DNA of 64,000 bases, taken from an uncultured Roseibium sp. GTDB lineage: Bacteria > Pseudomonadota > Alphaproteobacteria > Rhizobiales > Stappiaceae. Made by a program: the position numbers and the translations under genes. Below, one piece after another: positions 26,735 to 45,512 of the stretch. The notes below the pieces were generated by a model. The model searched no databases. It had not been told where the DNA came from and saw only the letters and a list, made by a program, of their open reading frames with translations. Position 1 is the stretch's first letter. The number at the start of each line of letters is the position of its first letter. The stretch covers positions 1 through 64,000 of the forward strand of contig NZ_CANLVF010000007.1 of NCBI RefSeq assembly GCF_947494555.1. Direction: 5' to 3'.

Positions 26735-26738
26735 TGTG

Positions 26739-29403: not shown

Positions 29404-29421
29404 CGGCTGAACCCGCTTGGA

Positions 29422-29450: not shown

Positions 29451-29481
29451 CTTTCCCTTTCATTCAAACCTTTCCGGCTAC

Positions 29482-31182
29482 GTGCATACGTCCTCAACTT
29501 CAGAAAAGACAACACTGATCGCACTGGTTATCGGTGCAACGGCTATTTGCGGACTGCCGCTTCTGTTGCTTTTCAAGACGGGCCTGACAACCGTTGCGGG
29601 GTTTGACCTCGGCCCATTGATTGAAGCCGTCCAAAGCCGCTCCGTTCAGCGCGCGCTCTGGAATTCGGTCGAAAGCAGCCTTTGCTCGGCGCTCGCCGCA
29701 ACACTGCTTGGAACGGCGCTCGCATTGCTTGTCGGCCTGACCGATATCCGCGCAAAGGGCATTCTCGTTTTCCTGCTGCTCTTGCCAATGATGATCCCAC
29801 CTCATGTGACTGCGATCGCCTGGATCCAGGCACTCGGACCGGCAAGCCCCGTCCTGCGATGGCTCGGGATCGCGCCGGAACTGGGCTCAACCCATCCGCT
29901 TTATTCGCGCGAAGGGCTCGTCCTCCTCCTGACGTTGCAACACAGTCCACTCGTCTTTTTGCTGGTGCGCGCAGCGCTCAGGTCATTCCCGCGCGAGCTT
30001 TCGGATGCAGCCAGAATATCCGGCGCGGGAACCTGGACCCTGTTGCGCAGGATCACGCTGCCGCTTCTGGGCCCCTCGCTCCTGGCAGGCTTCGCGCTCG
30101 CCTTTGTGGCGGCGCTCGGCAATTTCGGCATCAATGCCCTGATCGGGATCCCTGCACGCTACACCACGTTGCCTGTTCTGGTCTGGCGGCGGCTCGCAAG
30201 CTTCGGACCGGATATTCTACCGAATGTTGCCGTGATTTCCGTCATTCTCGCTTTTGTCGCCCTGGCTGCAATCCTCCTTCAAAGCCTTCTTCAGCGACGC
30301 ATGCGCTCCAGCCTGATCGGCCTTCCTCAGGATCCGCTGGCGATTTCACTCGGCCGCAAGCGGCCATTTGTTGAAGCGGTGGTGTGGGTGTTTGTCGCCG
30401 GAGTTCTCCTTTTGCCGGCCGCATCCCTGCTGGCGACATCGCTCGTTAAAACCTATGGATTGCCGCTGTCGGGCGAGACGCTGACATTGGATAACTTCAC
30501 CGAAGTTTTGTGGCGTCAAAGCGTAACCTTGAGAGCATTCGCAAACTCGACGGTCATCGCCGGCATCGCCGCTTTGGTCATCGCGGCAGTAAGCCTGCTG
30601 CTGGGATACTTTCTGGCACACAGACACAAGACCCACAGAAGGATAGCAAGCTTTGCCTTGAGCCAGTCAGAGATCGCATTCGCCGTTCCGGGGCTCGTTA
30701 TGTCAATTGCATTCATCCTGGCCTTCATCCGGCCTTTGCCGATCGTCAACGTCTCGCTTTACGGCACCTTGTGGATCATCCTGATCGCTTATGTCTCTGT
30801 TTTCCTGGCGGTCGGCCTGAAGCCGGTCACCGCCGCATTTCTTCAGATGGATGGCTCCCTCGAAGACGCCGCACGCGTATCCGGCGCTGGGTTTTTCCGC
30901 CGCATGTGCCGCATCTTTGCGCCGCTCGCGGCACCTTCTGCAGCCTCCGGCGCGATCCTTGTTTTCCTGACGGCCTATAACGAAGTCACGGTCTCCGCGC
31001 TGTTGTGGTCGACCGGCAACGAGACGATCGGAACAACGATCTTCAACTACGAGGACGGCGGCTACACAACCCTTGCCGCTGCAATGTCCGTCGTCGTCGT
31101 GGCCGCGACAATGGTGATCATGCTTGCCATGAATTTTCTTGCCCGGCGCGTCCCGTCCGGGACGATCCCCTGGCGGGATTGA
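29482..31182 (+). CDS. fused two-domain ABC importer permease (FbpB-like)
   Basis: The 566-residue inner-membrane protein joins two permease domains with about twelve segments. The two cytoplasmic coupling loops are ELSDAARISGAGTWTLLRRI (about 172-191) and SLEDAARVSGAGFFRRMCRI (about 455-474). This tandem form occurs in ferric-iron, thiamine and aminoethylphosphonate importers. The likely start is the GTG at 29482. Its ATPase is not downstream on the same strand but convergent on the other (31229-32275). Confidence 0.9.
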   Translation: MHTSSTSEKTTLIALVIGATAICGLPLLLLFKTGLTTVAGFDLGPLIEAVQSRSVQRALWNSVESSLCSALAATLLGTALALLVGLTDIRAKGILVFLLLLPMMIPPHVTAIAWIQALGPASPVLRWLGIAPELGSTHPLYSREGLVLLLTLQHSPLVFLLVRAALRSFPRELSDAARISGAGTWTLLRRITLPLLGPSLLAGFALAFVAALGNFGINALIGIPARYTTLPVLVWRRLASFGPDILPNVAVISVILAFVALAAILLQSLLQRRMRSSLIGLPQDPLAISLGRKRPFVEAVVWVFVAGVLLLPAASLLATSLVKTYGLPLSGETLTLDNFTEVLWRQSVTLRAFANSTVIAGIAALVIAAVSLLLGYFLAHRHKTHRRIASFALSQSEIAFAVPGLVMSIAFILAFIRPLPIVNVSLYGTLWIILIAYVSVFLAVGLKPVTAAFLQMDGSLEDAARVSGAGFFRRMCRIFAPLAAPSAASGAILVFLTAYNEVTVSALLWSTGNETIGTTIFNYEDGGYTTLAAAMSVVVVAATMVIMLAMNFLARRVPSGTIPWRD

Positions 31183-31228
31183 AGAAAGAGAAACAAGGAG
31201 GCCCAAGAGGCGCAATCCTGCGTTTTGC

Positions 31229-32275
31229 CTAATCCGGTAAGACCCAGCCGCGCAGAATGTCCAACTGCAAGGTCTCTCCGGGATCCGCCTTTCGGTACAG
31301 CGTCATCATCAATGGATCGTCGGCACAGTCGGCTTTCACAAAGACGTCCCAATAGCCGCCCCGATAGACTGTCCGAACCACCGTCGCCGCAAAGCCTCGA
31401 CCACCCGTAGACAGGACCAGATGTTCAGGACGCAACAGCAGCGTCGACGGACCGCCTCTGGTGCCTGCCGGACACTCCGCATCGAAAGCAAACGCGCCGA
31501 TCGAGACACGTGCCTCCTCCCCTTCGACCTGCTCCACGTGCACAGGGACAAGACTGCTGCGCCCGATAAAGCCGGCCACGCGCCTTGAGTTGGGCTGGCG
31601 ATAGATTACGTCCGGTTCATCTACCTGCAGTATTTCACCGTCCCACATGACTGCGACCTTATCGGCCAGAGCCATCGCTTCACGCTGGTCATGCGTAATG
31701 AACATCGAAGTCGCGCCGCTGGTCTTGTGGAAAGCTGCCAGTTCTTCCTCCATGACGCCGCGCAAGTGCGGATCGAGATTGGCAAGCGGTTCGTCCATCA
31801 GGACCGTTTGCGCTCCCTGCGCCAGGCACCTTGCCAGCGCAACCCTTTGCCGCTGGCCGCCGGACAGTTCAGCAGGTTTGCGCCGCGCGAACGAAGTCAA
31901 CGCAACTGTTTCCAGGCATTCGGCAACACGCGCATTGGTTTCAGAGCGGCTCTTGCCAGTCGTCTCTAGGGGAAATGCGACGTTTCCCGAAACGCTCATA
32001 TGCGGCCACAGCGCGTAGGACTGAAAAACGACACCGGCGCGACGTTCTTCCGGCGCCATATGAAAACCGTCCCGAGCGACCAATCGAGAACCCAGTGAAA
32101 TTTCGCCCGTATCTATAGGCTCCAGACCGGCTATCGCGCGAAGCAATGTCGATTTCCCGCACCCTGAAGGCCCCAGGACAACAAAGAAAGATCCTTCTTC
32201 GATTGCAAGGGAAACGGTGTTCAGGGCTTTGTGCGTTCCGAAAGACTTTGAGACGCCGGATAGGGTGATGGACAT
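31229..32275 (-). CDS. ABC importer ATP-binding protein (FbpC/PotA-like)
   Basis: The 348-residue ATPase has Walker A GPSGCGKST (about 34-42), signature LSGGQRQRVALAR, Walker B TVLMDEPLANLD, the His switch in FITHDQ, and a C-terminal TOBE domain (about 240-345) with LLLRPEHLVLS. It almost certainly serves the permease at 29482-31182, although the two genes converge 47 bases apart. It is the second gene of a minus-strand pair with a kinase-fold gene 57 bases upstream. Confidence 0.9.
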   Translation of the reverse strand: MSITLSGVSKSFGTHKALNTVSLAIEEGSFFVVLGPSGCGKSTLLRAIAGLEPIDTGEISLGSRLVARDGFHMAPEERRAGVVFQSYALWPHMSVSGNVAFPLETTGKSRSETNARVAECLETVALTSFARRKPAELSGGQRQRVALARCLAQGAQTVLMDEPLANLDPHLRGVMEEELAAFHKTSGATSMFITHDQREAMALADKVAVMWDGEILQVDEPDVIYRQPNSRRVAGFIGRSSLVPVHVEQVEGEEARVSIGAFAFDAECPAGTRGGPSTLLLRPEHLVLSTGGRGFAATVVRTVYRGGYWDVFVKADCADDPLMMTLYRKADPGETLQLDILRGWVLPD

Positions 32276-32291
32276 GGCTCCGGTTAACTTC

Positions 32292-32306
32292 TCTCTGTGA
32301 CAGAGA
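32292..32306. promoter_or_regulatory. perfect 15-base palindrome before the ABC ATPase gene
   Basis: TCTCTGTGACAGAGA has 7-base arms and a single central base. It lies 17-31 bases upstream of the ATPase ATG, in the gap after the kinase-fold gene. It could be an operator or a small RNA stem affecting ATPase translation. Confidence 0.4.
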
Positions 32307-32332
32307 AATTACACGGGGTAGAACACCAACCG

Positions 32333-33265
32333 CTATTTGGACCGAAGCCTGAGCAACAGATCCACTTCTTCTTCCAAAGCACGTCCATAAGCACGCGCTG
32401 CGGGAGCGTTGGTTGTTCCGAGCGTTTCGTGCCGATAGAGGCAATAGGCGGCAAGCCGCCAGTGATAAGCGCGGCGTTCCTCCTGAAAGCGTTCGACAAT
32501 CTGCTGGTTCGGGTAGTGCTTCAAAAACATTTCTTCGGCATAAGCGACCAGCGGATGAAGCCCGTAAAGCTTTAACAGCCCGGGGGAAACGAAACCGGCA
32601 ATGTCTTCCACAGGGTCGCCGTAACCGGCGAACTGCCAGTCGATCATTCGCGCTCCGTCCGCTGTGGACTGAATGGTCCCAAGGCAAAAGCTTCGATGGA
32701 CAAGAGTTCGTTCGACGGTCCGCTTCTTGACGGCATCGTCATTCGGCCGCAGCCGTTTCAGGTTAACCGCCTTCCGGCTCTCCGGAATGGCGGCCAGCAT
32801 GGCGTCACCCCGCTCGAGCACTTCATGAAAGCCTGCCGGAACCGTCTGGTGGCCAGGAACCGGTTCCATCAGATTTGCGATACGGCCGATCAGATCAGCT
32901 GCTTCACCGACATCGATTTCATCGGTCTTCGGCGGCCCGTATCCGTAAACCAGCAAAGGGGTTCCTACAGGGCTGAGCGAATAAATTTCCAGTTCCGGCG
33001 CAAGATCATATTGCGCAAGAAACGTCAGCGCCTCGGCTTCCTGGTCCGGCAATGTCGGATAGAGCGGATTGTCTTCCGCGCCGGGAAAGAACTCCTTTAC
33101 GACATAGATACGATCCGGCGTGTCGAGGCGCCAGAAACGGCTGGTATAGTTGACGGGCAGTGGCCGCAGGCGCGCGGTGCTCCAGTCCCTTGCCGGCAGG
33201 AGATCCCTCAGGAAAGTCAGAAGATCTGAATCGGACAGCCGTTCACGCACGCCACAAGGGTCCAT
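32333..33265 (-). CDS. aminoglycoside/choline-kinase-fold protein lacking the catalytic Asp
   Basis: The 310-residue protein has the APH/choline-kinase layout. A nucleotide-binding N-lobe carries Lys57 in IYVVKEFF, and the C-lobe includes MIDWQFAGYGDPVEDIAGF, where Asp209 fills the second metal position. The catalytic loop, normally HxDxxxxN, reads HRSFCLGT (190-197): the base Asp is Ser192 and the Asn is Thr197. It may therefore be a pseudokinase or use another mechanism. It is co-oriented with and upstream of the importer ATPase, which suggests a role with the imported compound, possibly an amino alcohol. Confidence 0.8.
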   Translation of the reverse strand: MDPCGVRERLSDSDLLTFLRDLLPARDWSTARLRPLPVNYTSRFWRLDTPDRIYVVKEFFPGAEDNPLYPTLPDQEAEALTFLAQYDLAPELEIYSLSPVGTPLLVYGYGPPKTDEIDVGEAADLIGRIANLMEPVPGHQTVPAGFHEVLERGDAMLAAIPESRKAVNLKRLRPNDDAVKKRTVERTLVHRSFCLGTIQSTADGARMIDWQFAGYGDPVEDIAGFVSPGLLKLYGLHPLVAYAEEMFLKHYPNQQIVERFQEERRAYHWRLAAYCLYRHETLGTTNAPAARAYGRALEEEVDLLLRLRSK

Positions 33266-33510
33266 AGCTATTTCAATAATCCTCTGATCGCTGCGCAGGT
33301 CCGTTTCGTCAAGTCGAACTTTTAAAGACGCGGGTCCGTGACACGCATTGCCTTAGCGTCATGTCGGAGTTGAAGCACAGACCGTCGCTCTCAGACTGCA
33401 CGGAAAATCGTCCCTCTCAGCTACAGTCTTCATGCTGAGACCGCCCGAGGCGCGGCAGCTGACGGTGGCCATTCTGCGCGCCACCTTCTTGAAAACCATG
33501 GCGGATCATA

Positions 33511-35091
33511 ATGACAGAGGAAACCGGATCAGCTTCCGTGAGTGAAACGGCACCCGCACGACGTGGACGACGCCGCAGAGGCGGCGGAGAAAAAGCCGGT
33601 CCGGACCTGTTTCCGCAAAAGCCCTTCAAGCAGCCGCAGCACATATTCAAGCCGATCGAGGCGATCTCGGCCGACGAACTGGAAGCCATCCATGATGCCT
33701 CAATGCGCGTTCTGGAGGAGATCGGCATGGACTTCCTCCACGAGGAAGCCAAGGCGATGCTGAAGGCGGCGGGCGCTGACGTGTCACCTGGCGAAGATCG
33801 TGTGCGCATGGACCGCGCCATGGTCGAAGAGCTTATCGCAAAGGCACCGCCTGAATTTATGTTGAGGGCGCGCAACCGCAACCACGACCTCAGGATCGGC
33901 GGCGACGCCATTGTCTTTTCCTGTGTCGCCAGCACGCCGAATGTGGTTGACCGCGACGGCGGCCGCCGTCCGGGCAACCGTGAAGATTTCCAGAAGCTTC
34001 TGAAACTCGGCCAGTTCTTCAACATCATTCATGCCCCGCTCGGCTATCCGGTCGAACCGGTCGACTTGCACGCATCGATCCGCCACCTGGATTGCATCGC
34101 AGACGCCATCCGTCTGACAGACAAGACGCTGCATCTTTATTCGCTCGGCAAGGAACGCAATCACGATGGCATCGAGCTTGCCCGCATTGCCAATGGGCTG
34201 ACGGCTGAAGAGCTCGTTGATACGCCTTGTACGCTGACGGTGATCAACACATCTTCGCCGCTGCGCCTCGACACACCGATGCTGCAAGGCTTGATCGAGA
34301 TGGCTAAGGCCGGACAGGTCTCGGTCGTCACCCCGTTCACACTTGCAGGGGCGATGGCTCCGGTCACCATGGCCGGCGCACTGACCTTGCAGAATGCCGA
34401 AGCACTTGCCGGGATCGCCTTCGCGCAGCTCGTCCGGCCGGGCGCACCGGTGGTCTATGGCGGTTTCACCTCGAACGTCGACATGAAGTCCGGCGCGCCT
34501 GCCTTCGGCACGCCTGAATACATGAAAGCCGCTCTGGTCAGTGGCCAGCTGGCAAGACGATACAACTTGCCGTTCAGATCCTCCGGTGTCTGCGCGGCCA
34601 ACACCGTGGACTACCAGGCCGCCCTTGAAACGACCTTGTCCGAGTGGGGCGCGATCAACGGCGGCGGCAATCTGATCAAACATGCCGCCGGCTGGCTGGA
34701 AGGCGGGCTGAGTGCAGGATTTGAGAAATTCATCGCCGATATCGATCTCCTTCAGAAAATCGCCGAGTACCTGACACCGCTCGACGTGTCCGAAGCATCG
34801 CTTGCCATTGACGCAATCCGCGATGTCGGACCGGCCGGGCACTTCTTCGGCACGGAGCACACGCAAGCACGCTACAAGGACGCGTTCTATCCGCCCATCG
34901 TCTCCGACTGGCGCAATTACGAGACCTGGGCGGAGGCCGGAAGTCCAACCGCCTATGACAAGGCCAACATGCTCTACAAAAAGGCGCTCGAAGCCTACGA
35001 GCAACCGGCACTCGATCCGGCTATCGACGAGGAAATCACAGCCTTTGTCGACAGGCGCAAAGCCGAAGGCGGGGTTCCGACCGACTTCTGA
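33511..35091 (+). CDS. trimethylamine/betaine methyltransferase family protein (MttB superfamily, non-pyrrolysine)
   Basis: The 526-residue protein belongs to the MttB family. Visible are an Arg-rich N-terminus (RRGRRRRGGG), a TIM-barrel core with EEIGMDFLHEEAKAMLKAAG, FSCVASTPNVVDRDGGRRPG, the VVYGGFTSNVDMKSGAPAFG segment and the C-terminal GPAGHFFGTEHTQARY. There is no in-frame amber codon, so it is not a pyrrolysine enzyme. It more resembles the glycine-betaine-type MtgB group. These enzymes transfer a methyl group from a quaternary amine to a corrinoid protein. No corrinoid protein or activase gene is near. It heads a three-gene unit with a DMGDH-like and a DddP-like gene. Confidence 0.88.
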   Translation: MTEETGSASVSETAPARRGRRRRGGGEKAGPDLFPQKPFKQPQHIFKPIEAISADELEAIHDASMRVLEEIGMDFLHEEAKAMLKAAGADVSPGEDRVRMDRAMVEELIAKAPPEFMLRARNRNHDLRIGGDAIVFSCVASTPNVVDRDGGRRPGNREDFQKLLKLGQFFNIIHAPLGYPVEPVDLHASIRHLDCIADAIRLTDKTLHLYSLGKERNHDGIELARIANGLTAEELVDTPCTLTVINTSSPLRLDTPMLQGLIEMAKAGQVSVVTPFTLAGAMAPVTMAGALTLQNAEALAGIAFAQLVRPGAPVVYGGFTSNVDMKSGAPAFGTPEYMKAALVSGQLARRYNLPFRSSGVCAANTVDYQAALETTLSEWGAINGGGNLIKHAAGWLEGGLSAGFEKFIADIDLLQKIAEYLTPLDVSEASLAIDAIRDVGPAGHFFGTEHTQARYKDAFYPPIVSDWRNYETWAEAGSPTAYDKANMLYKKALEAYEQPALDPAIDEEITAFVDRRKAEGGVPTDF

Positions 35092-35142
35092 TCAACGCAT
35101 TAATTCCTCGCCAAAACCAAGCTGGCATTCCGGAGCATACGC

Positions 35143-37578
35143 ATGAAAACTCACACTCAGGTCGTAGTCATTGGTGGTGGCGTCGTCGGCTGCAGTGTTC
35201 TTTATCACCTGACCAAACTCGGCTGGAAGGATGTCGTTCTCGTTGAGCGGGACGAGTTGACTTCCGGCTCTTCATGGCACGCTGCCGGCGGCTTTCACAC
35301 TTTGAACGGCGACCCGAACGTTGCCCAGCTGCAGAGTTACACCGTCGACCTCTACAAAGAGCTTGAGGAAATATCCGGTCAATCCTGCAGCCTTCACCTG
35401 ACGGGTGGTGTCATGCTCGCAGACACACCTGAACGCATGGACTTTCTGCGCCTTGCACAGGCAAAAGGCCGTTATCTCGGCATGGAACTGGAACTGATCT
35501 CCGTCGCCGAAGCCAAGACCATGTTCCCGATGCTCGACGAAAAGCACTTCATCGGCGCGCTCTGGGATCCGATCGAAGGGCACCTGGATCCTTCCGGCAC
35601 CACACATGCCTATGCAAAGGCAGCGCGTTTGAACGGTGCCACGGTCTATCGTCACACCAAGGTTGAGGAGCTGGTTCAAACGCCTGACGGGACCTGGGAT
35701 GTGATCACCAACGAGGGCACGATCCGGGCAGAGCATGTCGTCAATGCAGGTGGGCTCTGGGCCAGGGAATGCGGCCGCATGGTCGGCCTCGAACTTCCCA
35801 TACTTGCCATGGAGCACATGTATCTGCTCACGGACGAAATGCCGGAGGTGGTTGCCCACAACGAGGCAACGGGCAAGGAACTGATCGGCATTCTCGACTT
35901 CGGCGGCGAGATCTATACGCGGCAGGAAGGCAAGGGCATGCTGCTCGGGACCTACGAGCAGAATTGCCGCCCGTGGAGCCCGCGCGAGACCCCATGGGAT
36001 TTCGGCCATGAGCTTCTGGCGCCCGATCTCGACCGGATTGCACCGGAACTGGAGGTTGGTTTCGAGCACTTCCCGGCGCTTCAGACGGCAGGCATCAAGC
36101 AGATCATCAACGGACCCTTCACGTTTGCACCGGACGGCAATCCGCTGGTCGGTCCGGTCAGAGGCCTTCAGAACTACTGGGTCGCCTGCGGCGTCATGGC
36201 CGGGTTCAGCCAGGGTGGCGGCGTCGGCCTGACGCTTGCCAACTGGATGATCAACGGGGATCCTGGCTATGACATCTGGGGGATGGATGTTGCCCGATAC
36301 GGTGACTGGGCTACGCTCTCCTACACCAATGCAAAGGTGCAGGAAAACTATCGCCGCAGGTTCCGGATACGGTTCCCGAACGAGGAACTTCCGGCCGGCC
36401 GGCCGCATCAGACCACGCCGTTATACGACCGGATGCTCGCCAAGGGTGCTGTGATGGGCGACAGCTGGGGCCTGGAAACACCGCTCTGGTTTGCGCACGA
36501 AGGTGTTGAGGCGAAGGACATAGTCTCGTTCCGCCGGTCCAACGATTTCGATCACATCGGCGCTGAATGCCGGGCTGTGCGCGAGAGCGTCGGCGTCACG
36601 GAAATCGCGAACTTTGCGAAATACGAGATCAGCGGACCCGGTGCGGAAGACTATCTGTCCTTGCTGATGACGAACACGATGCCGAGGACAGGCCGCATCG
36701 TCCTGACCCCGATGCTGAATGAAAACGGCAAACTGATCGGCGACTTCACGATCGCGCGCGTATATGACGAAAAATTCTACATGTTCGGTTCGTCGCAGGC
36801 CGAAATCTATCACATGCGCTGGTTCGAAAAGCACCTGCCGGAAGATGGCTCCGTGAGCTTGAAGGCGATCAACCTCGGCTGGGTCGGGCTTTCGATTGCC
36901 GGGCCGAATTCGCGCAAGGTATTGCAGAAAATCACGGGCGATGACGTCTCGAACGAAGCTTTCCGCTTCATGGATTTCCGCGAGATGGACGTTGCCAATG
37001 CTCCGTGCAAGGTCAATCGCATCACCTATTCCGGCGACCTTGGCTACGAGATCTGGATGACGCCGGAATACGAGCGCCAGGTTTATGACGCCATCCTGGA
37101 GGCCGGCGCTGAGTTCGGCATCCGCGACTTCGGCATGCGCGCCCTCTTGTCCCTGCGCCTTGAGAAAAACTTCGGCACCTGGTTTCGGGAGTTCCGGCCG
37201 ATCTATGGGCCCTACGAGGCCGATCTCGGGCGTTTCGTGAAATTGTCGAAAAACCGCTTCATCGGCCAAGACGCGGCCCGGAAAGAATTCGAGGACGGGC
37301 CGAAGCGCCTGCGCGTCAGTTTCGAGGTCGAAGCGTCCGACGCCGACGTCATGGGCGATGAACCGGTCTGGCATGACGGCAAGGTCATCGGCTGGATCAC
37401 GTCGGGTGGCTATGCCCATTGGGTGCAAAAGTCGCTAGCTCAGGGATACATCCCCGCCGACCTCGCCAGCGCCACCGACAAGGGCGCGTTTGAAGTCGAA
37501 ATTCTGGGTGAAATGTGCAAGGCGACCATCCTGCCCGATCCACCCTTCGACCCAAAAGCAGAGCGCATGCGCATGTAA
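35143..37578 (+). CDS. dimethylglycine/sarcosine dehydrogenase-like flavoprotein with GcvT domain
   Basis: The 811-residue protein has an N-terminal FAD domain (VVVIGGGVVGCSVLYHL) and the segment TSGSSWHAAGGFHTL, in which His46 matches the covalent flavin His of dimethylglycine dehydrogenase. A GcvT/aminomethyltransferase fold and C-terminal barrel follow from about residue 430 (FRRSNDFDHIGAECRAVRES onward). This class oxidatively demethylates N-methylated glycines and passes the one-carbon unit to tetrahydrofolate. It lies 51 bases after the MttB gene and 46 before the DddP-like gene, all on plus. The exact substrate is not fixed. Confidence 0.9.
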   Translation: MKTHTQVVVIGGGVVGCSVLYHLTKLGWKDVVLVERDELTSGSSWHAAGGFHTLNGDPNVAQLQSYTVDLYKELEEISGQSCSLHLTGGVMLADTPERMDFLRLAQAKGRYLGMELELISVAEAKTMFPMLDEKHFIGALWDPIEGHLDPSGTTHAYAKAARLNGATVYRHTKVEELVQTPDGTWDVITNEGTIRAEHVVNAGGLWARECGRMVGLELPILAMEHMYLLTDEMPEVVAHNEATGKELIGILDFGGEIYTRQEGKGMLLGTYEQNCRPWSPRETPWDFGHELLAPDLDRIAPELEVGFEHFPALQTAGIKQIINGPFTFAPDGNPLVGPVRGLQNYWVACGVMAGFSQGGGVGLTLANWMINGDPGYDIWGMDVARYGDWATLSYTNAKVQENYRRRFRIRFPNEELPAGRPHQTTPLYDRMLAKGAVMGDSWGLETPLWFAHEGVEAKDIVSFRRSNDFDHIGAECRAVRESVGVTEIANFAKYEISGPGAEDYLSLLMTNTMPRTGRIVLTPMLNENGKLIGDFTIARVYDEKFYMFGSSQAEIYHMRWFEKHLPEDGSVSLKAINLGWVGLSIAGPNSRKVLQKITGDDVSNEAFRFMDFREMDVANAPCKVNRITYSGDLGYEIWMTPEYERQVYDAILEAGAEFGIRDFGMRALLSLRLEKNFGTWFREFRPIYGPYEADLGRFVKLSKNRFIGQDAARKEFEDGPKRLRVSFEVEASDADVMGDEPVWHDGKVIGWITSGGYAHWVQKSLAQGYIPADLASATDKGAFEVEILGEMCKATILPDPPFDPKAERMRM

Positions 37579-37624
37579 CGCTGCAGAATAGATCAGGCCA
37601 ACGCGGGAGGAGGCGTAGCCATAT

Positions 37625-39001
37625 ATGAATACGGAACATTTTGGCCGTCACCGGCGGAAAATACTGCCGGAAAGCCCGCTGATGCATCCGGGAGATCAGG
37701 CAGGTTATGAAGCGCTTTCGGCCTATGCCTTCGAAAAGGCGACGCTCCTGAACCGTCACATGCTCGGTTACGGCGCTTTCGTGGAAAACGAGTGGGCGGT
37801 GCTCGGACTGGACGCCCCCGATCTTGAAGTTGTTCGCAAATACCGGCTTGACCGCATTCGCCAGCAGCTCGAAAGATTCGACTTGAGCGCCGCGATCCTG
37901 TGCGATCCGCTGAACGTTCGCTATGCGACCGACGCAACCAACATGCAAATCTGGTCGGCTCACAACGCTGTCCGCTATACCTTTGTCGCCCTGGAAGGCC
38001 CAGTCGTCGCTTTCGACTTCCACAATTGCGAACACTTGTCTGCGCATAACTCCCAGGTCGATGAAATGCGGCATGGAATCCCCTGGTTCTATTTTGAAGC
38101 CGGCCCCCGCTCGCAGGAGCTCGCGCTGAAATGGGCTGACGAACTGGCGGACCTAGTCAAGACGTATGGCGGCGGCAACCACCGCATTGCCCTGGACAAG
38201 GCACGCCGCGAAGGCGTTGCTGTGCTGGAAGCGCACGGCTTGTCATTTCATGATGGTGAGGAAGTCATGGAACTTGCACGAGCCATCAAGTGCCCCGACG
38301 AAATCAGGGCGATGCGCAGATCGATTGCCTCGTGCGAAGCTGCCATGCAGGAAATGGAAACCGCACTCGTACCGGGCATGACGGAGTGGGAGCTATGGTC
38401 CCTCCTGCACGCAGGCAACATCAGACGGGGTGGCGAATGGGTCGAAACCCAGTTGCTCGCCTCCGGCCCGCGCACAAACCCCTGGTTCCAGGAGGCATCG
38501 GCCCGTGTGATCGAAGCCGGTGATCTTGTCGCATTCGATACTGATCTGGTCGGCCCCTACGGCATGTGCTGTGACATCTCGCGGACCTGGCTCTGCGGGA
38601 ACGATGCACCGACGCGAGAACAGCAGTCACTTTACCGGATGGCGTTCGATCAGATCGAAGCGAACATCGAAATGCTCGCACCCGGACGAACTTTCCGCGA
38701 ACTCTCTCATGATGCAAGCAGCCTGCCGGAGGAATATCTCGCAAACCGCTACTCCGTACTCTTTCACGGCGTGGGCCTGTGCGACGAATACCCGGCCGTT
38801 CCCTATCCGTCAGATTGGGAAAGCGGTGGCTACGATGGTGTCCTGGAGCCAGGAATGGTGGTTTGCGTGGAAAGCTACGTTGGCCGGCATGGCGGCCATG
38901 AAGGAGTAAAACTGGAAGAACAGCTGCTGATCACCGGGCAAGGGTATGAGCGTCTCAGCACATACCCCTACGACGAACGCTTGCTGGGCCGTCAGATGTG
39001 A
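37625..39001 (+). CDS. dddP: DddP-like DMSP lyase (M24 metallopeptidase fold)
   Basis: The 458-residue protein has the M24 creatinase/prolidase pita-bread fold and shares long stretches with DddP (GGEWVETQLLASGPRTNPWF, AFDTDLVGPYG, LFHGVGLCDE). All metal ligands known for DddP can be placed: Asp305, Asp307, Asp317, His381, Glu416 and Glu431. So can the catalytic Asp387, six residues after the His. Every one of these sits exactly ten residues later than the numbering I recall for Ruegeria DddP. DddP splits dimethylsulfoniopropionate into DMS and acrylate. The third gene of an operon on methylated amines, it might instead act on a related betaine. No acrylate genes (acuI, acuK) are nearby. Creatinases lack these metal ligands, so that role is unlikely. 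Confidence 0.78.
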   Translation: MNTEHFGRHRRKILPESPLMHPGDQAGYEALSAYAFEKATLLNRHMLGYGAFVENEWAVLGLDAPDLEVVRKYRLDRIRQQLERFDLSAAILCDPLNVRYATDATNMQIWSAHNAVRYTFVALEGPVVAFDFHNCEHLSAHNSQVDEMRHGIPWFYFEAGPRSQELALKWADELADLVKTYGGGNHRIALDKARREGVAVLEAHGLSFHDGEEVMELARAIKCPDEIRAMRRSIASCEAAMQEMETALVPGMTEWELWSLLHAGNIRRGGEWVETQLLASGPRTNPWFQEASARVIEAGDLVAFDTDLVGPYGMCCDISRTWLCGNDAPTREQQSLYRMAFDQIEANIEMLAPGRTFRELSHDASSLPEEYLANRYSVLFHGVGLCDEYPAVPYPSDWESGGYDGVLEPGMVVCVESYVGRHGGHEGVKLEEQLLITGQGYERLSTYPYDERLLGRQM

Positions 39002-39020
39002 CGGCCCGATATCAAGCGGC

Positions 39021-39326
39021 TTATCTTACGCGCAGGATCTTGGATCCGAGACCACGAATGTAGTCGTCTTGCGTGAAGACAACGACATTGGTCTCGCGAA
39101 CCTCGGTCATCTTCAGGTCAAGCGGTGTTTTTCCTTCCGGGTTGACAATGACCCTGCGTGTCGGCGGAAGCCCGCGGAACACCAGGACACCGGCTTCCTT
39201 GGTCACGATCGCACCATAGGGCTCATCATGAACGATGCGGGTCGTTCCGCTTTCAGCGTTTGCGGCGGTGGCGATAACCGCAAGCAATCCTGCGGTGGCG
39301 AGGGCTGATTTTAGTATCGTTTTCAT
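39021..39326 (-). CDS. small exported protein of unknown function
   Basis: The 101-residue protein has a clear signal peptide (MKTILKSALATAGLLAVIAT, cleavage after ANA near residue 23). The mature part is about 78 residues, basic and without cysteines, containing VLVFRGLPPTRRVIVNPEGK. I do not recognise the family. It converges on the dddP-like gene with 19 bases between the stops. Its upstream region carries three copies of a GTTAAC-type box. Confidence 0.7.
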   Translation of the reverse strand: MKTILKSALATAGLLAVIATAANAESGTTRIVHDEPYGAIVTKEAGVLVFRGLPPTRRVIVNPEGKTPLDLKMTEVRETNVVVFTQDDYIRGLGSKILRVR

Positions 39327-39337
39327 AACGCGCTCAC

Positions 39338-39450
39338 TGTTAACGAATGATTTACCGAGAATCGTAACCCTTCGTTAACATTTGCGCCAGCATTTCCGCC
39401 GAATTCACCAGGAATGTGCGTCACCAAGCAAGAACATCGTTAACGAATGT
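39338..39450. promoter_or_regulatory. three GTTAACGAA boxes upstream of the small exported protein
   Basis: TGTTAACGAA (39338-39347) and its perfect inverse TTCGTTAACA (39371-39380) are followed by a third copy, TCGTTAACGAATG, at about 39438-39450. Repetition in this 147-base gap suggests a regulator-binding array. The nearest genes are the small exported protein (start 39326) and the SRPBCC gene end (39474). Confidence 0.5.
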
Positions 39451-39473
39451 CTTAAAATGACACACATCAATTC

Positions 39474-39950
39474 TTACGCAGCCACCTTGGGGTGCGTCTC
39501 AACTCCCTTTTCCACGAAGTTGGCATTTGCGATCAGCAGATCCGACAGGCCTTTGCGGAATTGCGTTTTCATGATCGGCGTCATCAACCACCCAAGCGGG
39601 CCGAACTTCGGCGTGAAACTTATCCGCATTGTTACGCGGCTCTGCGTTTGCGCAAGGGACACAAAATCAAGTGTCACAATTGCCTTCTTGAGCGGCAGAT
39701 TGGCATCGAAAATATCGACGACAATATGCTCCTGCGGCTGATAGCCGATGATGCGTTCCTTAAGATAGGTCTTGCCATCGACATGTCTGCAGATCCGCTC
39801 CGCGCCCAATCCTGTCGGCGCACTTTCGGGCAGGAGCGGCGACTGGTTTATCACCGGATTGAACCTGTAGATTTCGTCATAGCTGTCCCAGCTGTGCCAC
39901 AGGTCGGCCAACGGGGCATTTACAAGCTGCGTAACAACAACTTCCGCCAT
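39474..39950 (-). CDS. SRPBCC / polyketide-cyclase-like protein
   Basis: The 158-residue protein has the START-like helix-grip fold: an opening strand VVVTQLVNAPLADLWHSW, a central set of strands with LKERIIGYQPQEHIVVDI, and a long C-terminal helix TPIMKTQFRKGLSDLLIAN. Such proteins bind hydrophobic ligands in a cavity; no catalytic residues can be assigned. It follows the haloalkane dehalogenase gene by 25 bases on the same strand and so is probably co-transcribed with it. Confidence 0.85.
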   Translation of the reverse strand: MAEVVVTQLVNAPLADLWHSWDSYDEIYRFNPVINQSPLLPESAPTGLGAERICRHVDGKTYLKERIIGYQPQEHIVVDIFDANLPLKKAIVTLDFVSLAQTQSRVTMRISFTPKFGPLGWLMTPIMKTQFRKGLSDLLIANANFVEKGVETHPKVAA

Positions 39951-39975
39951 CTTGATCTCCTTCGTTACGGCTCAC

Positions 39976-41013
39976 TCAGATACGGCGCAGCCAGTCGGCA
40001 ACGCCCTGGCCGATGACGTGTGGATGATCCTCCTGGAGAAAATGCGATCCGGCCCCGACGAAACGCGCTTCGATGTTGGGCACGTTCGCGGTCAGGTAGT
40101 CCGCAACTGGCTTGGGCATCAGCGCGCCCGGCTCCGCATAGAACATCAGCTTGGGAATCTGGCTCGACAGCAGCCATTCGCCGTTCAGCCGGACCTCTTC
40201 GACAACGTCGGCAGGCTTGCCCTCGATAGGCACTTCGCGCGGCCATGCCAGCACCGGTTTGCGGCTGTCAGGCGTCGGAAAGGGTCTGCGATAGTGATCC
40301 ATTTCCGCTTCGGACATGGCGCGCACGACACCCATTTGCGGCAGCACGAATTCCACGAAGAAGTTCTGGTTGAGCACCATGTCGGCGCCCTTTTCGCTGT
40401 GCATCAGACGGAAGAAATCGGCAAGCGGCCCGGGCATGTCGTCAAATGACGCGACCGGGAGCACAGGCGGCACGATGGCTTCCAGGAAGACCAGCCCGGA
40501 CACGCGGTCCGGGTTCAAGCGCGCATAGCGCATGCCGAGCGCAGAACCCCAGTCGTGGACCACCAGGATCGCGTTGTTCAGGTCCAGTTGATCGAGAAAA
40601 GTGTCCAGATATCGCGCATGATCGGCAAAGCGGTAGTCACCGTCAGGTTTGCCGCTATCGCCCATGCCGATCAGGTCGGGCGCAATGGCACGGTGGCTCT
40701 CCGATACATGCGGTATGATATTGCGCCACAGATAGGACGAAGTCGGGTTGCCATGCAAAAACACAACGGGCTGCCCTTCTCCCTCATCAACATAGGCAAG
40801 GGAGGAATCCAGCACGGACATTTCCTTCTTTTTGAATGGAAACTCCGCGCTGATCGGGATCCCATAAGGAGCGGCCGGATCCGAACCAAGCGTTTTGCTC
40901 CCTTCCTGCGCTATTGCATTGCCGGCTACTGGCAGAGCAAGCGCTGCACCTCCCGCGGCCGCCCCGGCCAACAACCTTCGCCGGGTTGTCTCAAATCTCA
41001 ACTTGCCACTCAT
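39976..41013 (-). CDS. Tat-exported haloalkane dehalogenase
   Basis: The 345-residue alpha/beta hydrolase carries a twin-arginine-like signal (TTRRRLLAGAAAGGAALALP, ending near AIAQ) and then the haloalkane dehalogenase set: nucleophile Asp154 with halide-binding Trp155 in VVHDWGSALG, Asn89 in LHGNPTSSYLW, acid Glu178 in FLEAIV and His324 in GSHFLQED. Asp-His-Glu with Asn/Trp matches subfamily II (LinB/DhaA type). It would hydrolyse carbon-halogen bonds, here in the periplasm if the signal is used. ATG 41013 is preferred over the GTG at 41025 because GGAGGA lies eight bases ahead. A LysR gene is divergent. Confidence 0.85.
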   Translation of the reverse strand: MSGKLRFETTRRRLLAGAAAGGAALALPVAGNAIAQEGSKTLGSDPAAPYGIPISAEFPFKKKEMSVLDSSLAYVDEGEGQPVVFLHGNPTSSYLWRNIIPHVSESHRAIAPDLIGMGDSGKPDGDYRFADHARYLDTFLDQLDLNNAILVVHDWGSALGMRYARLNPDRVSGLVFLEAIVPPVLPVASFDDMPGPLADFFRLMHSEKGADMVLNQNFFVEFVLPQMGVVRAMSEAEMDHYRRPFPTPDSRKPVLAWPREVPIEGKPADVVEEVRLNGEWLLSSQIPKLMFYAEPGALMPKPVADYLTANVPNIEARFVGAGSHFLQEDHPHVIGQGVADWLRRI

Positions 41014-41163
41014 AAAGTCCTCCACGTTCTTTCAAGGCCGAACTCGCGTTGAACGCGAGATGAGCTGAAATCTGGTGGATTGATTTTTGAAATGAATATG
41101 CCCAAATTGACCAATGTGGATAAAAAACGATCCACAAGCGAGAAACGAACGTGTAGGAATCAA

Positions 41164-42045
41164 GTGAAGCGGGAGCTGGACTGGGATCATCTGCGCACCT
41201 TTTTGGTGGCGGTACGCACGGGCAGCTTCCGCCAGGCGGCGGAAAAGCTGGGCGTGAACCACGGCACGGTGCACCGGGCGATTTCAGCCCTTGAAAGAGA
41301 CCTTGGCACGCGTGTCTTCGACCGCACGACCAGCGGGCTGCAACTGACCCAGTCGGGCGAAGCACTGGTTGAGCCGGCAGAGGAAATGGAGTCCCAGGCA
41401 AGCGCGATTACCCGCAGGATTTCCGGACTGGATCTCGCACCGTCGGGCTCGATTCGCCTCAGTCTGCCGCCGGCCTTGTCCCACGGGCTTTTAGCGGACA
41501 TGCTCTTTGAGTTTACGGAGCTTTACCCGGATATTTCGGTGCACACGATATCGACCAACCGTGTGTCGGACTTGCAGAAGCTCGAAACGGATATTTCGCT
41601 GCGCGTCGCGCGCAACGTCGACGAGGACGTGCTTGGGCGCAAACTGGTTACCTTCGTTCAGGCCGTTTATGCCTCTCCCGACTATCTGAAGATGTACCCT
41701 CAACTGCTTGAGAATGAGGGTGAAGGAGCAAACTGGATCGCTTGGAGCAGTCTCCAGGATTGGGTCGCAGGCAGTCCGTTCCCCAAGGCTCAGGTCCGCC
41801 ATGTTCTGCCGGAAGTCTCCATGCAGATCGAGGCGGCCGCGAAACATCTCGGCCTCATCAAGATCCCGGCCTTTATCGGCGATGTGGATCCGCGTATTGT
41901 TCGCGTGCCCGCTGTCCCGATCCAATCCGGCTATCCGGTCTGGCTGCTCTACCACCGCGATTTGCGGCGCGTAGCAAGGGTCCGGGCTTTCGTTGATTTT
42001 ACAACAAGCTTCTTTGCCCGCAACGAGCGGCGGTTCACGCACTAA
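41164..42045 (+). CDS. LysR-family transcriptional regulator
   Basis: The 293-residue protein has the LysR winged HTH (LRTFLVAVRTGSFRQAAEKL, then GVNHGTVHRAISALERDLG) and an effector-binding domain. The frame is open from 41080, with ATG codons at 41092 and 41098. The GTG at 41164 is preferred because AGGAA precedes it and it yields the normal LysR length. It is divergent from the haloalkane dehalogenase-SRPBCC pair with a short shared gap, so it probably regulates them. It converges on the PhnD-like gene. Confidence 0.9.
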   Translation: MKRELDWDHLRTFLVAVRTGSFRQAAEKLGVNHGTVHRAISALERDLGTRVFDRTTSGLQLTQSGEALVEPAEEMESQASAITRRISGLDLAPSGSIRLSLPPALSHGLLADMLFEFTELYPDISVHTISTNRVSDLQKLETDISLRVARNVDEDVLGRKLVTFVQAVYASPDYLKMYPQLLENEGEGANWIAWSSLQDWVAGSPFPKAQVRHVLPEVSMQIEAAAKHLGLIKIPAFIGDVDPRIVRVPAVPIQSGYPVWLLYHRDLRRVARVRAFVDFTTSFFARNERRFTH

Positions 42046-42059
42046 GGCAGCGACGAAGT

Positions 42060-42887
42060 CTATAAAAGTTCCGGGTAGCCTTTTTCAGCGGCGCTCCGTT
42101 CCATCTTCAGGAGCGGCTCATAGTCACTCTCCGAAAGTACGGAAAAGCCGTCGATCAGAAGGCGCTCGCGGGAAACCGATATTGCTGCGTCTGACAGAAC
42201 CGATTGGACAGTCCGGCAAATGATATCAGTGTCCGTGGGCGACCACGCGGCACTTGTGATGTAAGGCAGCCCCGGCGCTTTGATCGTGTGTCCGATGGAT
42301 CGCAGCTTTCCGGTCAGGTCAGGCAACTCCCTGAGCGCGAGTGACCAGCACACGGCATCGATGCTTGCAATATCGGCTTGACCGTCCGCCACCGACACCA
42401 TCGACTGCAAGTGGCTCCCGCTTTGTGCCACGCCTGAAAAAAACGGGGCGCCATCGGCGAGTTGTGCGACTTCGTGGCGGAAGGCGTTCATGCCTGACTG
42501 GCTGTCGCTCGCGTTGAAAACGGCGCGTAGCCCGCGCAGATCCGAAAGCGTTTCGTGTGCACTCTCCTTTGAAACGATCAGATGCGAACAGTAGTGTGGC
42601 CCGCTACAGCCGTCTGCCCTGTAATGCGGAGCCCCCACCACATGGACCTTGCCGCTGAGCGCATGCGTCAAAGGATAGCCGCAGGTTTGACCAAGCAGCA
42701 GACCCGGATGTTCCCAGCGATGGTGCAGGCCCATATCGGCCGGCCATTCGGCAGAATTGGTTGGATCAAGACCCAGCGCTTCAAGAAGGGCCGATTGCAG
42801 CGCGGTTTCAAGTTCCCTTGTTGCCGATCGGAATTCGGGCCAGTCGTACATCGGCAGGTTCACAGGATGACAGAGACGACCGATCAA
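42060..42887 (-). CDS. PhnD-like binding-protein-fold protein without signal peptide
   Basis: The protein (275 residues from TTG 42887) has the two-lobed PhnD/phosphonate-binding fold, with HYCSHLIVSKES, FNASDSQSGMNAFRHEV, SGSHLQSMVSVADGQADIAS and IDAVCW. The TTG overlaps the desaturase TGA (TTGA); an ATG at 42851 is the alternative. Either way the protein begins directly at the first strand (NLPMYDWPE) and has no export signal, and no ABC permease is adjacent. It may therefore be a cytoplasmic sensor or enzyme-like relative rather than a transport component. Coupling to the desaturase suggests a shared function. Confidence 0.75.
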   Translation of the reverse strand: MIGRLCHPVNLPMYDWPEFRSATRELETALQSALLEALGLDPTNSAEWPADMGLHHRWEHPGLLLGQTCGYPLTHALSGKVHVVGAPHYRADGCSGPHYCSHLIVSKESAHETLSDLRGLRAVFNASDSQSGMNAFRHEVAQLADGAPFFSGVAQSGSHLQSMVSVADGQADIASIDAVCWSLALRELPDLTGKLRSIGHTIKAPGLPYITSAAWSPTDTDIICRTVQSVLSDAAISVSRERLLIDGFSVLSESDYEPLLKMERSAAEKGYPELL

Positions 42888-43801
42888 GAGGCGCGTCCAT
42901 CGTGCGAACGGCGCCTGATCGGATGCGCAACCGGCTCTTTCACCCTGAAGAGATAGCTTCTGGCAAGGTGCACATAGCTTTTGAAAACGTAACCGGCGTT
43001 CCTGCGCTGCCAGTCGCTTTTTGCGGCTTGGTACATTGCCGGCAGCTCGTACCATGCTGCCCTCGGATGAGCGTGGTGCACGACATGAAGGTTGTTGTTC
43101 AGGAAAAGCAGCGAGAAAATCGGACAGAACTCGACGATGATCGACCGGGCTTCAGCGCTTTCATGTGCGCGGTGTTCGGCATAAGTGCGCAACATCAGCA
43201 AGCTCATGGCAGGATAAGAAACACACAGTGCATATAGCCACAAGGGCATGCCGCCTACGAGAGTTATGAAAAGGACGACGGGAGCGGCACCGGCAAAATG
43301 ATGCATCCATGCGCGCAGGACAGCCATGTCCCCGGCCAGGACCATTCTGATTTCAGAACCGAGAAAGCCGATCATCGAAACGAGCGGGCCAATCAGCAAT
43401 CTGCCGAAGAGCGTGTTGTTGATCGTCAGAACAAACTGCAGGAATTTGGGCAGCTTCTGCCAGTCCGCCCAAGCAAGATAGAATGTTTCCGGATCGTCAT
43501 AGGGATCCGTCAGACGGTCGTTGTTATGGTGGCGCAGGTGGAGGGACTTGAACCGCCGATACGGAACGAACAGACCAAGCGAGCAATAGACCAGTGCCTC
43601 GTTGACGCCGGGATGCCGGGTCGGGTGTCCGTGCAGGACTTCATGTTGAAGGGAGGATTGCAAAGTGACGACAACAACAGCAAGCGGGCAGACCAGCCAT
43701 CCTCCAAGCGAGGCATAATTTCCGACCAAAAGCATCCAGATTGCCGCTGCAGCCATTATCAAGGCAAGCGTCGGCCATTCGCGTAAATCAATGCGCGTCA
43801 C
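42884..43801 (-). CDS. membrane fatty-acid-desaturase-like di-iron enzyme
   Basis: The 305-residue membrane protein has the three histidine boxes of membrane desaturases and hydroxylases: HEVLHGH (about 53-59), HLRHH (about 88-92) and HVVHH (about 239-243). Extra conserved residues are NNNLHVVHHAHPRAAWYELP. Four or more hydrophobic segments can be seen. It would use O2 and two irons to desaturate or hydroxylate a lipid or small substrate. Translational coupling to the PhnD-like gene and the nearby divergent DAO-type oxidoreductase suggest a pathway, but its substrate is unknown. Confidence 0.85.
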   Translation of the reverse strand: MTRIDLREWPTLALIMAAAAIWMLLVGNYASLGGWLVCPLAVVVVTLQSSLQHEVLHGHPTRHPGVNEALVYCSLGLFVPYRRFKSLHLRHHNNDRLTDPYDDPETFYLAWADWQKLPKFLQFVLTINNTLFGRLLIGPLVSMIGFLGSEIRMVLAGDMAVLRAWMHHFAGAAPVVLFITLVGGMPLWLYALCVSYPAMSLLMLRTYAEHRAHESAEARSIIVEFCPIFSLLFLNNNLHVVHHAHPRAAWYELPAMYQAAKSDWQRRNAGYVFKSYVHLARSYLFRVKEPVAHPIRRRSHDGRAS

Positions 43802-44180: not shown

Positions 44181-45512
44181 ATGAACACCACGCCATCGCA
44201 TCAGAAAGGCGCTCCAACCGACTACGACGTGATCATCATCGGCGCAGGCGTCATCGGCTGCGCGATTGCCTATAATCTTGCCAAAAACGGGTTGAAAACA
44301 CTCAATGTCGATGCCTTGCCGGCGGCCGGGTATGGATCGACTTCCAGTTCCGCAGCTGTGATCCGAACCTATTATTCCACGCTGGACGGCACCGCCATGG
44401 CCTATGAAGGTTATCACGACTGGAAGAACTGGCCGGAAACCCTGGGCGCAGAAACGGACGACGGGCTTGCGCAATTTATCGAAACCGGCACGCTTGTGAT
44501 GAAGACCGCCACCGACACACTTGAACGGGTTCAGGAACATTCCGACACGTTGGGCATTGTTTATGAACACTGGTCCGCAGAGCAAATCATGGAGCGATTG
44601 CCGGGGTACAATCTTGAATGTTTCGCCCCTGTCAAGACGATGGATGACGACGCTTTCGGTACGCCGACCGGAGGACATCTGGACGGTGGAATATATTTTC
44701 ATGCGGGCGGATATGTCGACGATCCCCAGATTGCGGCGAGAAACCTGAAGGATGCAGCAAGTCGACTTGGAGCCGAATTCCGATTCAACACCAAGGTCGT
44801 ATCGATACCGGTCGAGAAAAATCGGGTAACAGGCGTGACCTGCGATGACGGAAGCATCATTCAGTCGAATGTCGTTCTCAACGCTGCCGGTCCTCATTCG
44901 GGCAAGGTCAACGCTCTCCTGGAAAGGGATGCGGGCGTCCGGATCCGCCATCGTCCGCTGCGTCAGGAAGTCGTGCAGGTTAAACCACCGGAAACGCTAG
45001 GATATTCGCGCAAGGGACTGCTTGTTGCCGACAACGATGTGGGTGTCTATGTCAAGCCAGGAAGCGGTGGGCAGCTAATGATCGGCAGTCTGAACCCGGC
45101 TTGCGACAAGCATATCGAAGAAGATCCCGATACATTTCACCGCGACCTGACCGACAGGTCTCTTGCCTATGCATACCGTTATTCCCAGCGTTTGCCGGAA
45201 CTGGGTGTTTCACAGCATCCCGTCGGCATCGCCGATCTTTACGATGCAACAGACGACTGGCTGCCGATCTATGATCGCAGCGATGTCGATGGTTATTATC
45301 TCGCCATCGGCACCAGCGGAAATCAGTTCAAGAATGCGCCTGTCGCAGGACGCCTGATGTGCCAGCTGATCGAATATTGCGAGAGCGGCAAGGATCATGA
45401 CAACGAGCCACTGCAATTCAATCTGAACCATGTTGACCACACGCTCAATACGGCAACCTTTTCCCGAAAGCGGGATCTGACGCAGGAAAGTTCCTTCTCG
45501 GTGCTCGGCTAA
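44181..45512 (+). CDS. FAD-dependent oxidoreductase, DAO / sarcosine-oxidase-beta-like
   Basis: The 443-residue protein has an N-terminal Rossmann FAD motif (YDVIIIGAGVIGCAIAYNLA) and the DAO fold: a substrate domain with STSSSAAVIRTYYST, and a C-terminal return GYYLAIGTSGNQFKNAPVAG. No GcvT domain is present, in contrast to the flavoprotein at 35143. Likely activity is oxidation of a secondary or tertiary amino acid such as an N-methylated glycine. A GGAAGAA ribosome site precedes the ATG. It stands alone and is divergent from the desaturase pair. Confidence 0.87.
   Translation: MNTTPSHQKGAPTDYDVIIIGAGVIGCAIAYNLAKNGLKTLNVDALPAAGYGSTSSSAAVIRTYYSTLDGTAMAYEGYHDWKNWPETLGAETDDGLAQFIETGTLVMKTATDTLERVQEHSDTLGIVYEHWSAEQIMERLPGYNLECFAPVKTMDDDAFGTPTGGHLDGGIYFHAGGYVDDPQIAARNLKDAASRLGAEFRFNTKVVSIPVEKNRVTGVTCDDGSIIQSNVVLNAAGPHSGKVNALLERDAGVRIRHRPLRQEVVQVKPPETLGYSRKGLLVADNDVGVYVKPGSGGQLMIGSLNPACDKHIEEDPDTFHRDLTDRSLAYAYRYSQRLPELGVSQHPVGIADLYDATDDWLPIYDRSDVDGYYLAIGTSGNQFKNAPVAGRLMCQLIEYCESGKDHDNEPLQFNLNHVDHTLNTATFSRKRDLTQESSFSVLG

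What the first reader, a model, noticed from the sequence alone, without database searches (positions are those of the whole stretch)
33511..39001. Three-gene operon MttB-like / DMGDH-like / DddP-like: possible combined betaine-sulfonium catabolic module
Seen: three co-oriented genes, gaps of 51 and 46 bases, encoding a non-pyrrolysine MttB-family methyltransferase, a covalent-flavin GcvT-fused dehydrogenase and a DddP-like M24 protein. Known: these families act on quaternary amines, tertiary/secondary N-methyl glycines and DMSP respectively. Inference: one operon may handle a set of methylated osmolytes, or the M24 protein may cut an unrecognised betaine whose product feeds the flavoprotein. 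I do not know of a described pathway with this gene trio.
Basis: partly seen in the sequence, partly recalled or inferred. Interest (0 to 1): 0.78.

Follow-up and report, generated by a model that had tools for sequence, protein, structure and literature searches.

The report
Betaine-demethylation operon with DMSP-lyase-like enzyme
A conserved bacterial gene set for stripping methyl groups from nitrogen osmolytes carries a close cousin of a well-known sulfur-osmolyte-cutting enzyme, which suggests that many genes counted as that enzyme may do a different, still unknown job.

Summary
At 33511-39001 of a Roseibium/Labrenzia genome an MttB-type methyltransferase, a DMGDH-like flavoprotein and a DddP-like M24 protein lie in a row. 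The genome also encodes the corrinoid partners that aerobic MttB enzymes use.

The M24 protein keeps ten of ten checked DddP active-site positions but scores below the DddP cut-off (482 against 600 bits) and falls in a sister clade (moderate support). There, 38 of 39 rows with full flanks have MttB nearby; in the true DddP clade 0 of 12. In 385 alphaproteobacterial genomes, DddP relatives under 500 bits start within 3 kb of MttB in 13 of 80 cases (0.6 expected); those over the cut-off in 0 of 12.

Best reading: an aerobic cobalamin-dependent betaine-demethylation module with an M24 enzyme feeding it, not a DMSP-lyase operon. Against a strict trio: 10 Roseibium genomes keep the first two genes without M24. 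Substrate unknown.

The parts
33511..35091 (+). MttB-superfamily (MtgB-like), non-pyrrolysine quaternary-amine:corrinoid methyltransferase
   Evidence: PF06253 657.9 bits; PDB relatives 4yyc, 2qne/9yce glycine betaine methyltransferase
35143..37578 (+). DMGDH-like flavoprotein: FAD amine dehydrogenase fused to a GcvT folate domain
   Evidence: DAO + FAO_M + GCV_T + GCV_T_C; human/rat DMGDH E 7e-181; SSWHAAG aligned with STWHAAG of DMGDH; that this His carries the FAD is recalled
37625..39001 (+). DddP-like M24 metalloenzyme of a sister clade to the DMSP lyase DddP
42884..43801 (-). FA_desaturase-like membrane di-iron protein, recurrent neighbour of the trio (role unknown)
   Evidence: PF00487 121 bits; in 41 of 56 loci examined
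42060..42851 (-). PhnD-like substrate-binding domain protein, no signal peptide by eye; follows the desaturase-like gene. ORF as listed is 42060-43055; the start at 42851 is inferred from the length of relatives
   Evidence: PF12974 57.9 bits; in 47 of 56 loci examined
44181..45512 (+). Second DAO-family flavoprotein (sarcosine/N-methyl-amino-acid oxidase-like), candidate for the last demethylation
   Evidence: homologues in Kiloniella L092, L098 and Rhodobiaceae L151 trio loci
31229..33265 (-). Divergent pair: ABC ATPase (31229-32275) and APH-fold kinase (32333-33265); kept beside the trio in most of the fetched Roseibium loci, not seen outside the genus

Best explanation
The row is the core of an aerobic, cobalamin-dependent betaine-demethylation module. 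MttB (an MtgB paralogue) moves one methyl group from a quaternary amine to the genome's corrinoid protein, from which an MtgD-like protein passes it to tetrahydrofolate. The DMGDH-like flavoprotein takes the next methyl groups as methylene-tetrahydrofolate, and a second flavin oxidase (44181-45512, or sarcosine oxidase elsewhere) may finish. The DddP-like M24 protein is not the DMSP lyase of this host. It is an iron-type M24 enzyme of a sister clade that most likely cuts a C-N (or other C-onium) bond of a carboxylate-bearing betaine or conjugate, by the DddP chemistry (carboxylate on the metal pair, alpha-proton taken by Asp387, cationic head at Trp110/Tyr376), so that the product enters the demethylation steps. 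Shown: families, conservation, linkage, active-site residues, corrinoid partners in the genome. Inferred: metal, reaction, order of steps, substrate.
For: Conserved trio and tight spacing. Recurrence in several families with changed gene order. MttB beside M24 in 38 of 39 trio-clade rows with at least 6 kb on both sides, 0 of 12 in the DddP clade, 0 of 5 for Roseibium M24 paralogues. Even survey of 385 genomes: 13 of 80 low-scoring relatives start within 3 kb of MttB, 0.6 expected, 0 of 12 over the DddP cut-off. Ten of ten checked active-site positions identical in 46 of 46 trio-clade rows. Model closest to 4s01/4rzy. Corrinoid-binding protein, pterin-binding protein and RACo activase in the genome. 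In Roseibium the 16 complete M24 genes all occur with MttB and the flavoprotein, but not the reverse, as expected of a feeder step. Aerobic MtgBCD precedent: PMC12478193 (abstract, results part 1, discussion read).
Against: 10 of 27 Roseibium genomes with the flavoprotein have a clean gap where M24 stands. Only 21 of 80 low-scoring relatives have MttB within 20 kb, so most have some other context. Identical active-site residues are equally compatible with DMSP cleavage. Trio-clade support is moderate (93/86; sister branch 91/78). Corrinoid partners are not beside the trio but on another contig. No substrate evidence.
Confidence: 0.55

Rival explanations
1. The M24 protein is a working DMSP/DMSOP lyase, and the operon simply gathers enzymes for several methylated osmolytes.
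For: All checked DddP active-site positions conserved; nearest solved structures are DddP, 44-45% identity, rmsd about 2 A; Labrenzia isolates cleave DMSP (PMC6309047, passages).
Against: Under the DddP equivalog cut-off and outside the DddP clade; six positions separate the two clades; the trio is common in Mesorhizobium and Aminobacter, many from soil or nodules, where DMSP is an unlikely main substrate (inference); DMSP cleavage in Labrenzia LZB033 and L. aggregata is assigned to DddL in the passages seen.
Confidence: 0.2
2. The M24 protein hydrolyses a C-N bond as creatinase or ectoine hydrolase do, releasing an N-methylated amino acid from a conjugate; no beta-elimination.
For: Same fold superfamily: creatinase and EutD are found by the model (TMq 0.64-0.65); ureohydrolase- or agmatine-deiminase-like genes next to three deep-branching relatives; glycine cleavage genes beside four loci and sarcosine oxidase genes in two others.
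Against: Asp387 and Phe288 stand where M24 peptidases have histidines, as in DddP (the peptidase positions rest on passages and on recall); sequence is far from creatinase (16-19% identity).
Confidence: 0.15
3. M24 is a loosely attached passenger: the functional unit is the MttB-flavoprotein pair, and M24 acts elsewhere.
For: Loss of M24 alone in 10 Roseibium genomes; MttB-flavoprotein pairing without M24 in 4 of the 5 other MttB loci of this genome.
Against: Linkage in several families with different gene orders, far above expectation; no complete M24 gene of this clade without the pair in Roseibium.
Confidence: 0.1

Closest known systems
DddP DMSP lyase (Ruegeria lacuscaerulensis 4rzy, Roseobacter denitrificans 4b28)
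   Same: Fold (TMq 0.86), all ten checked active-site positions
   Different: 44-45% identity, 482 against 600 bits, sister clade, six clade-separating positions, MttB/DMGDH context
Aerobic glycine betaine demethylase MtgBCD with DMG and sarcosine steps (Ruegeria pomeroyi, PMC12478193)
   Same: PF06253 methyltransferase, corrinoid protein, pterin-binding protein and RACo activase in the genome, DMGDH-type follow-up
   Different: An orphan MtgB paralogue with its own M24 partner; that paper notes up to seven PF06253 paralogues per genome of open substrate; corrinoid genes not adjacent here
Mitochondrial dimethylglycine dehydrogenase
   Same: Domain architecture, FAD-site motif
   Different: Substrate untested; it is 50-51% identical to another flavoprotein of this genome beside MttB (L058) and 25% to the one beside a BHMT/MtgE-like gene (L057)
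Creatinase and ectoine hydrolase (M24)
   Same: Pita-bread fold
   Different: 16-19% identity; DddP-type residues

Membership tests
DddP (DMSP lyase) | Curated equivalog score (NF043017, 600 bits) | tested here: not met
   481.9 bits; other trio-context members tested 437.7-515.7, Oceanimonas and Loktanella DddP 629.5 and 870.4
DddP (DMSP lyase) | Metal ligands, Tyr366 and Asp377 | tested here: met
   D305 D307 D317 H381 E416 E431 Y376 D387, identical in 46 of 46 trio-clade rows. Tyr366, Asp377, Asp295 and Asp297 are named in passages of PMC4108388; the other ligand numbers are recalled
DddP (DMSP lyase) | Falls inside the clade that holds the solved DddPs | tested here: not met
   DddP clade of 15 rows 100/100, trio clade 34 rows 93/86, sister branch 91/78
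DddP (DMSP lyase) | DMSP to DMS + acrylate | not testable with these tools
   needs an assay
MttB superfamily, non-pyrrolysine | PF06253 and no pyrrolysine stop | tested here: met
   657.9 bits; TIGR02369 297.7 of 525; uninterrupted ORF
Aerobic MtgBCD system | Corrinoid protein, pterin-binding methyltransferase, reductive activase | tested here: met
   PF02607 63.2 bits in a 245-aa frame; PF00809 101.5, RACo_C_ter 299.6 bits; MTHFR-like neighbour only 19.9 of 24 bits; located on another contig, not beside the trio
Aerobic MtgBCD system | Acts on glycine betaine | not testable with these tools
   needs growth or enzyme assays
DMGDH/DMGO family | FAD domain + GcvT folate domain + flavin-linking His motif | tested here: met
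M24 peptidase (prolidase/aminopeptidase P) | Catalytic histidines | tested here: not met
   Phe288 and Asp387 at those columns; that two His are exchanged in DddP is from a passage, the column for Phe is my assignment

The most novel reading that the evidence does not exclude
The sister clade of DddP is a family of nitrogen-betaine lyases: it removes an amine from a beta-onium carboxylate (beta-alanine betaine, the nitrogen isostere of DMSP, is the simplest candidate; alternatively a conjugate that releases an N-methylated glycine) and feeds cobalamin-dependent demethylation. DMSP lyase DddP would then be a derived offshoot of betaine catabolism: its active site is already complete in the MttB-linked enzymes, and at five of the six clade-separating positions the other relatives mostly share the trio state.
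Probability: 0.3. Interest if true: 0.82.

Novelty: new variant of a known kind. Interest (0 to 1): 0.6.

Why it matters
DddP is counted as the most abundant bacterial DMSP lyase (about 65% of ddd genes in a Tara survey, PMC10686828, passage), and one metagenome study assigns sediment dddP, predicted in 37.8% of bacteria, largely to Pseudomonas and Mesorhizobium (PMC7039863, passages). In 385 alphaproteobacterial genomes, 74 hold a strong DddP-family match but only 12 pass the curated cut-off. If the MttB-linked relatives do another reaction, DMSP-cleavage potential is overestimated (whether those surveys' thresholds admitted this clade was not checked). The finding also gives orphan MtgB paralogues a testable context and a possible origin for DddP.

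Tried and rejected
Literature: 0 papers hold DddP, MttB and dimethylglycine dehydrogenase together; 3 papers hold at least 3 of 5 related terms, of which I saw passages of one, which lists dddP and mttB as separate genes of Shimia; DddP + Mesorhizobium gives 3 papers. The library holds only openly licensed PubMed Central papers.

Homarine as substrate: searches gave no gene cluster to compare. Beta-alanine betaine catabolism: 18 papers hold the terms, 12 listed, no pathway seen in titles or abstract starts.

Rejected: the 951/122/356-aa neighbours in L094 first looked to me like sarcosine oxidase; they are glycine cleavage P, H and T. The desaturase-PhnD pair as strict partner of the trio: rejected in Roseibium, where G009, G015 and G027 keep it without MttB; the pair also occurs on plasmids in other contexts. 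Creatinase-type identity: no close match. dN/dS for the PhnD-like gene failed (frame error). No Rfam family at gathering level in 26000-46000. Mesorhizobium synteny is weak evidence alone: unrelated genes (VWA protein, ECF sigma) are conserved there too. Parsimony needs 7 changes of MttB linkage on the tree, so 'ancestral' is not proven.

Full report
What is there. The host is Roseibium/Labrenzia: the window's genus group in the genome search holds contigs that the named collection lists under those names.

Conservation in the genus. Of 37 Roseibium genomes (own included), 16 have a full-length M24 orthologue at 79-100% identity; two more are cut by contig ends or fragmented (G023, G001). All 16 have MttB and the flavoprotein next to it in the same order: 15 fetched and the window. 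MttB orthologues occur in 29 of 37 and the flavoprotein in 27 of 37. In 10 genomes MttB and the flavoprotein stand at the same locus without any trace of M24 at E 1e-3; G014 keeps MttB alone; three (G009, G015, G027) keep only the desaturase and PhnD-like genes; five (G016, G018, G022, G025, G030) have none of the four. M24 is thus nested inside the pair and dispensable.

Beyond the genus. A scan of named genomes (586 relatives confirmed in a capped list, best 80 kept) shows MttB and the flavoprotein near M24 in Mesorhizobium, Aminobacter, Ahrensia and an Afifellaceae MAG in the same order, sometimes with genes between; in Kiloniella on the opposite strand with the second oxidase, PhnD-like and desaturase-like genes; in a Rhodobiaceae MAG as MttB-M24-flavoprotein-oxidase. 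Annotated plasmids add Parasedimentitalea marina, Terrarubrum flagellatum, with sox, flavoprotein, bmt, MttB, M24 and, across the origin, PhnD-like, desaturase and a B12-binding gene, and Sinorhizobium meliloti, whose M24 is more distant and lies by a glycine betaine ABC transporter. Among 56 loci compared, MttB families occur in 50, flavoprotein in 50, PhnD-like in 47, a BHMT/MtgE-like gene in 43 and desaturase-like in 41; Mesorhizobium dominates this set.

Controls for linkage. On a tree set of 46 trio-clade rows (23 near-identical Mesorhizobium-group loci, all with MttB, were dropped first), 38 of the 39 rows with at least 6 kb on both sides have MttB; the exception, L098, ends 8 kb downstream of M24. 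The DddP clade has 0 of 12, other relatives 5 of 18, and five Roseibium paralogues of M24 have 0 of 5. A less biased test took 385 alphaproteobacterial genomes drawn evenly: 102 matches to the DddP model at E 1e-90 in 74 genomes, 12 over the cut-off (the first look scores at most four candidates a genome, so counts are lower bounds). PF06253 positions in the other 73 genomes came (list truncated), for the own genome. Start-to-start within 3 kb: 0 of 12 over the cut-off, 0 of 10 at 500-600 bits, 13 of 80 under 500 (0.6 expected from MttB counts and genome sizes; reached in none of 100,000 simulations). Within 20 kb: 0 of 12, 0 of 10, 21 of 80 (3.9 expected). So linkage is real, but three quarters of low-scoring relatives lack it: the wider family is mixed.

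The M24 protein. It is 44-45% identical to solved DddPs; the AlphaFold2 model (mean pLDDT 84) matches 4s01/4rzy/4b28 at TMq 0.86, peptidases, creatinase and EutD at 0.57-0.67. Ten positions (W95, F278, D295, D297, D307, Y366, H371, D377, E406, E421 in 4rzy numbering) are identical in 46 of 46 trio rows; Roseibium M24 paralogues have Gly at 377 and Phe at 95. Passages of PMC4108388 and PMC5395565 name the metal set in kind, Tyr366 and Asp377; W95 and F278 are my assignments. Six positions separate DddP from the trio clade; at five of them most other relatives share the trio state. Tree: DddP clade 100/100, trio clade 93/86, sister 91/78, so the sister relation is likely, not certain.

The rest of the pathway. 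Six PF06253 genes are in the genome; four of the five others also lie near a DMGDH-like gene. A corrinoid-binding protein, a pterin-binding protein and a RACo activase stand together on contig C2. This matches the aerobic MtgBCD system of Ruegeria (PMC12478193; abstract, first part of results and discussion read), whose authors note up to seven PF06253 genes per genome and suggest other methylated substrates. Secondary-amine oxidation is provided by a DAO-family oxidase (Roseibium, Kiloniella, Rhodobiaceae) or sarcosine oxidase, and glycine cleavage genes flank four loci. A GbdR-like regulator (287.9 of 480 bits) precedes one rearranged trio (L055).

Mechanism. MttB and the flavoprotein demethylate (inferred from families). 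For M24 I commit to C-N or C-onium bond cleavage upstream of them: the DddP residues fit a carboxylate on the metals and a cationic head in an aromatic site; the nesting in Roseibium fits a feeder; and the MttB linkage argues against DMSP as the main substrate. The reaction itself is not shown. Desaturase-like and PhnD-like roles stay open.

Verdict. Observation confirmed; interpretation partly supported; a new variant of a known kind, with an open enzymatic question that a single assay could settle.

Noticed in passing
window 39976-41025 (-): Haloalkane dehalogenase (NF002938, 392 bits against cut-off 241) with what looks by eye like a twin-arginine signal (TTRRRLLAG), beside a SRPBCC-like and a LysR gene; kept in many but not all Roseibium trio loci.
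   Followed up: no
L167/L168 (Terrarubrum flagellatum plasmid): A plasmid region across the record's start carries sarcosine oxidase, DMGDH-like, bmt, MttB, M24, peptide-type ABC transporter, Ldh, ornithine cyclodeaminase, PhnD-like, desaturase, B12-binding, DUF1638 and a gene annotated as virulence factor: a nearly complete betaine-catabolic set.
   Followed up: partly
L141, L054, L158: Agmatinase-like (two) and agmatine-deiminase-like (one) genes lie near deep-branching M24 relatives; L141 also has threonine dehydrogenase and glycine C-acetyltransferase next to MttB and M24.
   Followed up: partly
L058/L059 (own genome, contig C3): Two further MttB genes about 17 kb apart, with a DMGDH-like gene, an aldehyde dehydrogenase-like and a DapA-like gene (by eye) and a cis-3-hydroxyproline-dehydratase-like protein (255 of 500 bits), which looks like a hydroxyproline-betaine cluster.
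   Followed up: partly
window 42060-43801 (-) and L169, L172: A desaturase-like plus PhnD-like pair recurs on Pantoea and Rhizobium plasmids near flavin monooxygenases and peptide-type transporters, so the pair seems a reusable unit of unknown function.
   Followed up: partly
L070, L073, L154, L160, L173: Other DddP-like or DddP genes lie near Rieske oxygenase genes (annotated, or by eye), in L070 and L154 also BCCT-type transporters: oxygenase-type betaine demethylation may be a second common context.
   Followed up: no
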